DNA of 64,000 nucleotides. Source: Desulfatibacillum sp. Lineage in GTDB: Bacteria; Desulfobacterota; Desulfobacteria; Desulfobacterales; SpSt-501. Where the stretch lies: assembly GCA_020725555.1 (NCBI GenBank), contig DYEU01000018.1, positions 143,113 through 207,112 on the forward strand, given 5' to 3'. The notes beneath the pieces were generated by a model that was given only the letters and a program-made list of their open reading frames with translations, ran no database searches and was not told the DNA's origin. A program made the position numbers and the translations under genes. Shown here in pieces: positions 33,057 to 34,894 of the stretch; position 1 is the first letter of the stretch, and each line of letters opens with the position of its first letter.

Positions 33057-33382
33057 CCCTTGTGTCGGAAAATTGACATCCGGCCGCGCGGTTCCTCCCC
33101 GCGGTGCTCCCCCCGCCCCGTTTTCGCCGCGATTTCAAGCCGCGCCCCGTTTGTTTCCCGGCATGCGTTTTGCTTAATCCCGGCAAGCGATTTGTTTAGA
33201 CGGTGTGCCCGGGGCATCACCGCGGCGGCCCGCCGCCGCCCGGAACAGCCCACCATCAACCGCACCAGGACTTGTCGGCCGCCGACCCGGAAAGGAGGCG
33301 CAGAGGAACAGGGCCGCCGCGCCACCCAGTCCCGGGCAGTGAACAACCCAAAACACGGTAACGAACGAAACAGGAGGGTGGA
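33057..33382. other. 326 bp intergenic region upstream of the Hint lipoprotein gene
   Basis: No gene is seen. Three TTTG(T/C)TT repeats (33150-33156, 33169-33175, 33191-33197) lie about two helical turns apart; the last two sit in a longer 22 bp direct repeat beginning GCG. A TTGACA at 33073 has no matching -10. TTGCTT (33170) is followed after 17-19 bp by TTTAGA-like sequence. GGAGGGTGG precedes the ATG at 33383. Confidence 0.45.
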
Positions 33383-34288
33383 ATGCGTCGTGTTCTTTTT
33401 TGGATGATGCTCTTGGGCTGCGCCTTCGGCGTCACGGCCTGCGAGACGATCCCGATCGGCAATCTTACCGGCGTGTTCAAGGCCGAGCAGGACCCGAACT
33501 CGGCACGCCTCTCGGAGATCAACGCCGAGCTGGCCGCCGCGGAAGCCAAGATGCAGCAGCTTCAAAGCGATCGGGCGGTTGCGGAAGCCCAGCGCAACGA
33601 ATCCTTCATCGAACTCGCCAAAGCGACGGGAACCGGACCCAAGCCGCCGGGCGGCATGGGGGACTTTATGTCCGAAACGCTGACCAGCGATCCCGGCATG
33701 ATGATCGTCATGCACAACAACAACGTGACGGCGGCACGCGAAAAGATGAAGGAGATCGACGCCGAAATGGCCGCGCTGAACGAAAAGGCATCGAAGCTCA
33801 AAGCCGAGCGCGCCCGGCTGGAGCAGGCGATCGCCCAGAGCGCGAAGTCCTCCTTCGACCCCGGGGGCGCCTGTTTCACCCCCGACACGCGGATCCTGCT
33901 GCCCGGCGGGACGAAGAGCATCGCCGCCGCGGCCGCCGGCGAGGAGCTCGTCGCCTACGACGAAACAAGCGGCGCCCTGACCCAACGGCCGATCCTGCAG
34001 ACCTTTCGCGGCCGCGAGGACCACTACTTCCTGCTCAACGGCGAGGTGCGGGCGACCGCCATGCACCGCTTCCTGACCGACCGCGGCTGGGTGCGGGTGA
34101 AGGACCTCGAGATCGGCATGCTGCTCCGCACCACCGAGGGCTGGACCCCGCTTGCGAGCAAGAAGCTGATCGAGGCCGAGGTCGAGGTCTTCAACATGGA
34201 GGTGGCCGCCGAGCAGGATTTCTTCGTCGTGGGCGAAAACCACGCCTACCTGGTCCACAACACCGGGGGCGGCGGCGGCGGGAAATGA
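33383..34288 (+). CDS. Lipoprotein with coiled coil and C-terminal Hint (intein/hedgehog-type) domain
   Basis: 301-aa protein. A lipoprotein signal (lipobox VTAC, C20) is followed by two helical, charged stretches (about 41-80 and 114-152). Residues 164-293 form a Hint domain: C164 in GACFTPDTRILL, block B T225xxH228 (RATAMHRF), GWVRVKDLEIGMLL, and a C-terminal block ending HAYLVHN, with H292-N293-T294. Only TGGGGGGK remains after Asn293. Such domains self-cleave; here cleavage would release the Hint from a membrane-anchored coiled-coil protein, perhaps with a new C-terminal bond. There is no endonuclease insert and no toxin. It is followed 60 bp later by a small secreted protein gene. Confidence 0.85.
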   Translation: MRRVLFWMMLLGCAFGVTACETIPIGNLTGVFKAEQDPNSARLSEINAELAAAEAKMQQLQSDRAVAEAQRNESFIELAKATGTGPKPPGGMGDFMSETLTSDPGMMIVMHNNNVTAAREKMKEIDAEMAALNEKASKLKAERARLEQAIAQSAKSSFDPGGACFTPDTRILLPGGTKSIAAAAAGEELVAYDETSGALTQRPILQTFRGREDHYFLLNGEVRATAMHRFLTDRGWVRVKDLEIGMLLRTTEGWTPLASKKLIEAEVEVFNMEVAAEQDFFVVGENHAYLVHNTGGGGGGK

Positions 34289-34348: not shown

Positions 34349-34894
34349 ATGAAACGATACGCCAAGCTGACCGTTGGGGTCCTTTTGCTGATCCTGATCA
34401 CCGCCGGCGGCGCCCCGGCCGCCTCCGACCCGGGCGGGGTCCAGGGCCTTGCCTGGGCCAAGCCCGCCGATGCCTGCATTCAGGCCGGGCTGTGCGCGAA
34501 CAAGACCCTGCCCCTGGAAAACGCGCTCGCCGGGAAGGAACAATTTTTGGCCGGCCGGATGAAAGAATTTCACGGCCTCCCCGTCCGGGATGCGTCCTTC
34601 GGCTTTCACGAAAACCGCTTCTACACGGCAAACGTCTTCTTTCAGCCCGCCCAGGCGCCCTTCGAGCGCATCCGCGAGGCGCTCACCCGAGAGCACGGCA
34701 CGCCCAAGTCCGCAGACGCCCGCGGCGCCTTCTGGCAACTGGGCAACACCAAGATCCTGCTCTACAAGGGCGAGCATTTCCATGGGCTGACCTACGCCCA
34801 CGCCCCCGAGATGGCCAAAGTCGCCAAGGCCAAGGGCTACCCCCAGCCCCCGGCCCCCGCACCGGCCGCCGCACCGGCGAAAAAGAAAAAGTAA
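34349..34894 (+). CDS. Small secreted protein of unknown function
   Basis: 181-aa protein with a signal peptide (LTVGVLLLILITAGGAPAA, cleavage about residue 25) and a Pro/Ala/Lys-rich C-terminal tail. Two Cys (43 and 49) could form a disulfide in the periplasm. The central part (FLAGRMKEFHGLPVRDASFG, FFQPAQAPFERIREALTREHG, FWQLGNTKILLY) resembles periplasmic proteins that compare input and output lengths, but no family is assigned. GGAGAGGG precedes the ATG. It is co-transcribed with the Hint lipoprotein and ends 13 bp before a strong hairpin, so the two may act together. Confidence 0.75.
   Translation: MKRYAKLTVGVLLLILITAGGAPAASDPGGVQGLAWAKPADACIQAGLCANKTLPLENALAGKEQFLAGRMKEFHGLPVRDASFGFHENRFYTANVFFQPAQAPFERIREALTREHGTPKSADARGAFWQLGNTKILLYKGEHFHGLTYAHAPEMAKVAKAKGYPQPPAPAPAAAPAKKKK

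What the first reader, a model, noticed from the sequence alone, without database searches (positions are those of the whole stretch)
33383..34288. Membrane-anchored lipoprotein ending in a self-processing Hint domain
Lipobox C20, a coiled-coil body and a full Hint domain (C164, T225xxH228, H292-N293) with only eight residues after it. Most bacterial Hint domains sit before toxins or inside enzymes. Here cleavage at C164 would free the Hint or join the C-terminus of the lipoprotein to a nucleophile, a hedgehog-like reaction at the bacterial envelope.
Basis: partly seen in the sequence, partly recalled or inferred. Interest (0 to 1): 0.75.

Follow-up and report, generated by a model that had tools for sequence, protein, structure and literature searches.

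The report
Lipoprotein with an intein-like self-processing tail
A bacterial membrane-anchored lipoprotein carries at its end an intein-like domain with the residues needed to cut itself out, and its few relatives keep a short glycine-rich tail ending in lysine beyond it, which suggests the domain is spliced out to leave that tail on the lipoprotein; this is a prediction from sequence and has not been shown by experiment.

Summary
The ORF at 33383-34288 is a real gene: it has a Shine-Dalgarno site and dN/dS of about 0.27 against a same-genus relative. It encodes a lipoprotein (lipobox VTAC20), a helical hairpin and a Hint domain with C164, T225xxH228 and H292-N293. [quoted passage not shown]

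It is Thr294, a possible +1 nucleophile, followed by GGGGGGK. In all seven coiled-coil lipoproteins of this clade the +1 residue is C, S or T, the tail is Gly-rich and the last residue is Lys, although Hint identity falls to about 28%.

Intein-like splicing that leaves lipoprotein-[C/S/T]GnK therefore fits better than a hedgehog-like reaction. Caveats: four of the seven have Glu in place of the block-B His, the window's protein has Gln where relatives have a block-F His, and activity is untested. Braun-type attachment of the terminal Lys was considered; the only L,D-transpeptidase found in this genome has YcbB-type architecture, which weakens that idea. Verdict: a small new variant of a known kind.

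The parts
33372..33377 (+). Shine-Dalgarno site AGGAGG, 5 bases before the ATG
   Evidence: sequence read
33383..33439 (+). type II (lipoprotein) signal peptide, residues 1-19
   Evidence: charged start, hydrophobic stretch, lipobox VTAC; inferred, not tested with a signal-peptide program
33440..33442 (+). C20, predicted lipidated cysteine; +2 residue is Glu (no Asp inner-membrane retention signal)
   Evidence: outer-membrane sorting is inference from the E. coli rule
33494..33853 (+). helical hairpin / coiled-coil body, residues 38-82 and 104-157
   Evidence: AlphaFold helices at pLDDT about 75-86 in their cores; weak coiled-coil matches
33872..34261 (+). Hint domain, residues 164-293, no endonuclease insert
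   Evidence: PT-HINT above cut-off; profile match to 2lwy and 8w20
33872..33874 (+). C164, first residue of Hint (block A nucleophile)
   Evidence: invariant in the nine-sequence alignments
34055..34066 (+). T225-A-M-H228, block B TxxH
   Evidence: Thr invariant, His replaced by Glu in L004, L013, L014, L015
34193..34195 (+). N271, block F:4 position (Asp in typical inteins, Asn also in BIL 2lwy)
34214..34216 (+). Q278 at the block F His position; the closest relatives have His
34256..34261 (+). H292-N293, block G penultimate His and terminal Asn
   Evidence: kept in all coiled-coil lipoprotein homologues
34262..34285 (+). T294-GGGGGG-K301: +1 nucleophile and Gly-Lys tail (possible C-extein)
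   Evidence: same pattern in all seven clade members
34349..34894 (+). next gene, small predicted secreted protein, no Pfam family; adjacent also in G003 (68% identity)

Best explanation
The gene makes a precursor of an envelope lipoprotein whose C-terminal Hint domain processes itself, most likely by an intein-like splicing reaction. C164 takes over the lipoprotein chain as a thioester, the +1 nucleophile T294 accepts it, N293 cyclises, and the 130-residue Hint is removed. The product would be lipoprotein-helical hairpin-A163 joined to T294-GGGGGGK. Shown: the domains, the catalytic-type residues, the conservation of a +1 C/S/T and of the Gly-rich tail ending in Lys across the clade, and purifying selection. 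Inferred: that the reaction happens, that splicing outweighs simple cleavage, whether it happens before or after export, and what the Gly-Lys end is for.
For: All residues of a class 1 type reaction are present (C164, T225, H228, H292, N293, T294). The Hint is related to 2lwy, a BIL domain used in a published trans-splicing study (Aranko 2013, cited in PMC7664689). Published BILs lack a +1 nucleophile (PMC4031507, PMC7664689), but here all seven coiled-coil lipoproteins have one: T in P0001, L002 and L014, C in L058, S in L004, L013 and L015. Adding L012, which also has S, gives 8 of 8, against 5 of 34 other H-N Hint domains collected here (Fisher 1.1e-5), or 5 of 14 without the Tim44-type proteins (0.004); the residues were counted by eye and tested, and relatedness is not corrected for. 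The seven form one clade (95/87) with internal branches of about 0.5 changes per site, so the +1 residue changed but stayed a nucleophile. The tail varies from 6 to 12 residues and in its Gly codons, yet always ends in Lys; the background for terminal Lys is 7 of 90 ORFs. The residue before Cys1 is always Gly or Ala. The body was not found without the Hint in 208 genomes of the order.
Against: No experiment. Four of seven clade members have Glu instead of the block-B His, the most conserved intein residue (PMC4031507), so N-terminal chemistry may be lost or done differently there. The window's protein has Gln278 at the block F His and Asn271 at F:4, which could slow Asn cyclisation or thioester formation. 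More distant lipoprotein relatives have +1 Lys (L016), a stop straight after H-N (L106) or no H-N (L003). The Gly-rich tail could be only a linker. Few sequences are known and they are related.
Confidence: 0.45

Rival explanations
1. BIL-type cleavage without ligation: C164 forms a thioester that is hydrolysed and N293 cyclises, so the lipoprotein loses its Hint and the Gly-Lys tail leaves as a short peptide.
For: Block F is BIL-like (Asn at F:4 as in 2lwy), Pfam puts the domain in PT-HINT, and A-type BILs give mainly cleavage products (PMC4031507).
Against: The conserved +1 nucleophile and terminal Lys have no clear purpose if the tail is thrown away.
Confidence: 0.28
2. The Hint is inactive or nearly so and stays as a folded C-terminal domain of the lipoprotein.
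For: Loss of block-B His in four homologues, Gln278 in the window's protein, loss of H-N in L003 and L010, and a frame break in the Hint gene of G119.
Against: C1, Thr B:7 and H-N are kept in all seven clade members over long branches; dN/dS is about 0.27 in the C-terminal part, residues 133-300.
Confidence: 0.16
3. Hedgehog-like transfer: the thioester at C164 is taken by an outside nucleophile (lipid, sugar amine, another protein), giving the lipoprotein a C-terminal adduct.
For: Two clade-2 relatives (L004, L014) match Pfam Hint (PF01079, the hedgehog-type module) above its cut-off over about 50 residues; the first step of the chemistry is shared across Hint domains (PMC7664689).
Against: No extra domain after the Hint for substrate recognition; an internal nucleophile (T294) is already in place and H-N is kept.
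Confidence: 0.07
4. The product's C-terminal Lys is joined to peptidoglycan as in Braun's lipoprotein, the splicing step merely delivering the lysine.
For: Lipoprotein, helical body and terminal Lys after processing; terminal Lys kept in 7 of 7; YkuD proteins occur in all nine genomes tested.
Against: The only YkuD protein found in the window's genome has Scaffold and PG_binding domains, the YcbB type of architecture (my own knowledge); E. coli Lpp is attached by LdtA, LdtB and LdtC (PMC10653827, abstract). G003's single YkuD looks the same by sequence.
Confidence: 0.04

Closest known systems
A-type bacterial intein-like (BIL) domains (2lwy)
   Same: Hint fold by profile match, TxxH, Asn at F:4, terminal His-Asn, host in variable secreted-type proteins, no endonuclease
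   Different: BILs are described as lacking a +1 nucleophile; here T, C or S is at +1 in all seven clade members, and the Hint is followed only by a short Gly-Lys tail
Class 1 mini-inteins
   Same: Cys1, TxxH, His-Asn, +1 C/S/T
   Different: Host is not a conserved enzyme site but a fast-evolving lipoprotein; C-extein is only 6-12 residues in the clade; the body was not found without the Hint in the genomes searched; F:4 is Asn; four relatives lack block-B His
PT-HINT (PF07591), polymorphic-toxin Hint
   Same: Pfam model passes its cut-off
   Different: No toxin domain follows; the host is a short lipoprotein, not a large secreted toxin
Hedgehog Hog domain (PF01079)
   Same: Hint at the C-terminus of an exported, lipid-bearing protein; two homologues (L004, L014) pass the PF01079 cut-off in the first part of the Hint
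   Different: No sterol-recognition region; His-Asn and +1 nucleophile kept; lipid here is predicted at the N-terminus by the ordinary lipoprotein route
Braun's lipoprotein Lpp
   Same: Lipoprotein, helical body, predicted C-terminal Lys
   Different: No sequence similarity tested or claimed; made by direct translation; LdtA/B/C-type transpeptidase not found in this genome

Membership tests
Hint superfamily | Hint-fold sequence profile with Cys1 and block B/F/G motifs | tested here: met
   PT-HINT 35.3 bits against 27.7; 8w20 and 2lwy by profile; the AlphaFold model is too weak to add to this
A-type BIL | terminal His-Asn | tested here: met
   H292-N293
A-type BIL | no C-extein +1 nucleophile | tested here: not met
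   T294; T/C/S in 7 of 7 clade members; definition from PMC4031507
Class 1 intein | nucleophile at position 1 and at +1, TxxH, His-Asn | tested here: met
   C164, T294, T225xxH228, H292-N293
Class 1 intein | Asp and His in block F | tested here: not met
   N271 and Q278; PMC7765530 says block F usually has Asp and His, so this is typical rather than strict
Class 1 intein | intein-free homologues whose extein is continuous across the site | tested here: inconclusive
   no Hint-less homologue of the body in 208 genomes; the search was limited
Class 1 intein | protein splicing observed | not testable with these tools
   needs expression and mass spectrometry
Hedgehog Hog | sterol-recognition region after the Hint | tested here: not met
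   only eight residues follow
Bacterial lipoprotein | signal peptide with lipobox ending in Cys | tested here: met
   VTAC20; lipobox-like motif also read by eye in L003, L004, L008, L012-L017 and L058; no predictor was run, and lipidation itself was not tested
Braun-type peptidoglycan-linked lipoprotein | LdtA/B/C-type transpeptidase in the genome | tested here: not met
   single YkuD protein found, with Scaffold and PG_binding domains
Polymorphic toxin | C-terminal toxin domain and immunity gene | tested here: not met
   eight-residue tail; the next gene has no Pfam match

The most novel reading that the evidence does not exclude
Protein splicing is used as a maturation step for an envelope lipoprotein: the Hint is kept to build a defined [C/S/T]-Gly(n)-Lys C-terminus, whose lysine (or the thioester before ligation) serves as a covalent attachment point in the envelope.
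Probability: 0.08. Interest if true: 0.8.

Novelty: new variant of a known kind. Interest (0 to 1): 0.48.

Why it matters
If it splices, this would be an intein-like domain fixed in a lipoprotein that was not found without it in the genomes searched, so splicing would be part of making the protein rather than removal of a parasite. Conserved +1 nucleophiles with BIL-like active sites would also help to place BIL domains between inteins and hedgehog domains. The 130-residue domain with a natural short Gly-Lys C-extein could be a handy ligation tool. If it does not splice, it remains a small, rare lipoprotein-Hint family worth recording.

Tried and rejected
Toxin reading: rejected, nothing follows the Hint and the neighbour has no Pfam match. 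Chance Gly run or slippage: rejected, the tail uses mixed Gly codons, differs in length between relatives and ends in Lys each time; in the window only this ORF of 366 has such a tail. Antisense ORF: rejected. Conserved partner gene: none seen beyond the genus. Phage or plasmid origin: no viral-contig relative; plasmid hits are 53 records, all under 60% identity, and of the 30 listed the annotated ones are mostly polymorphic-toxin Hints; the Roseomonas hit with the best coverage is part of a long protein. The genome-contig scan found only the same-genus copy. Papers: of the searches for lipoprotein-Hint proteins, the only two papers holding both 'Hint domain' and 'lipobox' concern Neisseria Maf toxins and secretome; most subscription papers, including the original BIL papers, were not available to read.

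Full report
What is there. The frame 33383-34288 (+) codes for 301 residues. It begins with a lipoprotein signal (lipobox VTAC20; a Shine-Dalgarno AGGAGG lies five bases before the ATG), continues with a helical hairpin (residues 38-82 and 104-157, AlphaFold pLDDT about 75-86 in the helix cores) and ends in a Hint domain, residues 164-293, followed by TGGGGGGK. PT-HINT passes its cut-off; a profile of nine relatives matches 8w20 (6e-18) and the BIL structure 2lwy (2.6e-15). The gene is single copy in its genome. Against the same-genus copy in G003, dS is 0.47 and dN 0.13 over residues 133-300, so the gene is under purifying selection.

Relatives. Searches of the order, class and phylum show that Hint domains of this kind are scattered, and that a compact lipoprotein version is rare: about ten genomes of the roughly 400 searched from the order, plus G488 from another class, whose Hint is 64% identical to the window's. 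The layout is lipobox, helical or repeat body, Hint, short tail. One clade of seven holds the coiled-coil forms: the window's protein, L002 (cut at a contig end, so its lipobox is not seen), L058, L004, L013, L014 and L015, with support 95/87. The close relation of L058, from another class, to the window's gene suggests horizontal transfer, or misplaced contigs in one of the assemblies; this was not resolved. L002's record is titled an uncultured Desulfobacterales bacterium.

The tail. After His-Asn the seven read T-GGGGGG-K (window), T-GGGGGGG-K (L002), C-GGGG-K (L058), S-SGGGGGA-K (L004), S-GGGGA-K (L013), T-SGGGSGGGGP-K (L014) and S-SGGG-K (L015); a further lipoprotein, L012, reads S-K. The Gly codons are mixed, so this is not a slipped repeat. 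The +1 residue is a nucleophile in 8 of 8, against 5 of 34 other H-N Hint domains collected here, or 5 of 14 without the Tim44-type proteins (read, tested). The terminal residue is Lys in all eight, against 7 of 90 other ORFs from these loci and the window. These counts do not correct for relatedness, but the residue at +1 has moved among T, C and S across long branches while staying a nucleophile. Outside the clade the pattern is looser: L016 has +1 Lys and ends in Ser, L106 stops after H-N, and L003 and L010 end in FLVK without H-N.

How it probably works. Reviews state that BILs lack the +1 nucleophile and that A-type BILs mostly cleave (PMC4031507; PMC7664689). Here it is present, which makes intein-like splicing the best single prediction, with cleavage the main rival. 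Points against are the BIL-like Asn271 at F:4, Gln278 where the closest relatives have His, and Glu in place of the block-B His in four of the seven clade members. [quoted passage not shown] So the chemistry may differ or be lost in part of the clade. No Hint-less homologue of the body was found in 208 genomes, so the usual extein-continuity test for an intein could not be done.

Use of the product. A lipoprotein with a helical body and a C-terminal lysine recalls Braun's lipoprotein, which is linked to peptidoglycan by LdtA, LdtB and LdtC (PMC10653827, abstract). All nine genomes tested have a YkuD protein, but the only one found in the window's genome has Scaffold, PG_binding and YkuD domains, the YcbB type of architecture, and G003's looks the same by eye. 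That weakens the idea for this organism. The role of the tail stays open.

Verdict. Nothing here shows the reaction itself.

Noticed in passing
L019, L021, L022, L026, L060, L062, L071, L073-L076: Proteins with a signal peptide, two to four tandem Hint domains joined by short KG or KGGG linkers, a Gly/Ser-rich stretch, a membrane helix and a region that I take to be Tim44-like (Pfam not run). Why several Hint domains are kept in a row is not explained.
   Followed up: partly
L024 (104-1891, minus strand), L029 (271-2013): Multihaem-cytochrome-like proteins (many CxxCH) with a Hint set between CxxCH motifs, with Ser or Ala where Cys1 would be.
   Followed up: no
L105:9683-11447 (G025), L010: Neighbouring lipoprotein-Hint genes; the complete one (L003), and a further copy on another contig (L010), end FFLVK without His-Asn, so only N-terminal chemistry could remain.
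   Followed up: partly
L106:5849-6790 (G119): Lipoprotein-Hint gene with a frame break inside the Hint; whether it is a real pseudogene or a sequencing error is not known.
   Followed up: no
window 34349-34894; L097, about 570-1120: Downstream small predicted secreted protein conserved in the genus (68% identity), no Pfam match, ending APAKKKK in both species.
   Followed up: partly
L103:2151-4366 (G146): A CsgG/TPR lipoprotein with a C-terminal Hint lies next to a paralogue that has a Gly-rich tail ending PSYPSGPTYP and no Hint.
   Followed up: no
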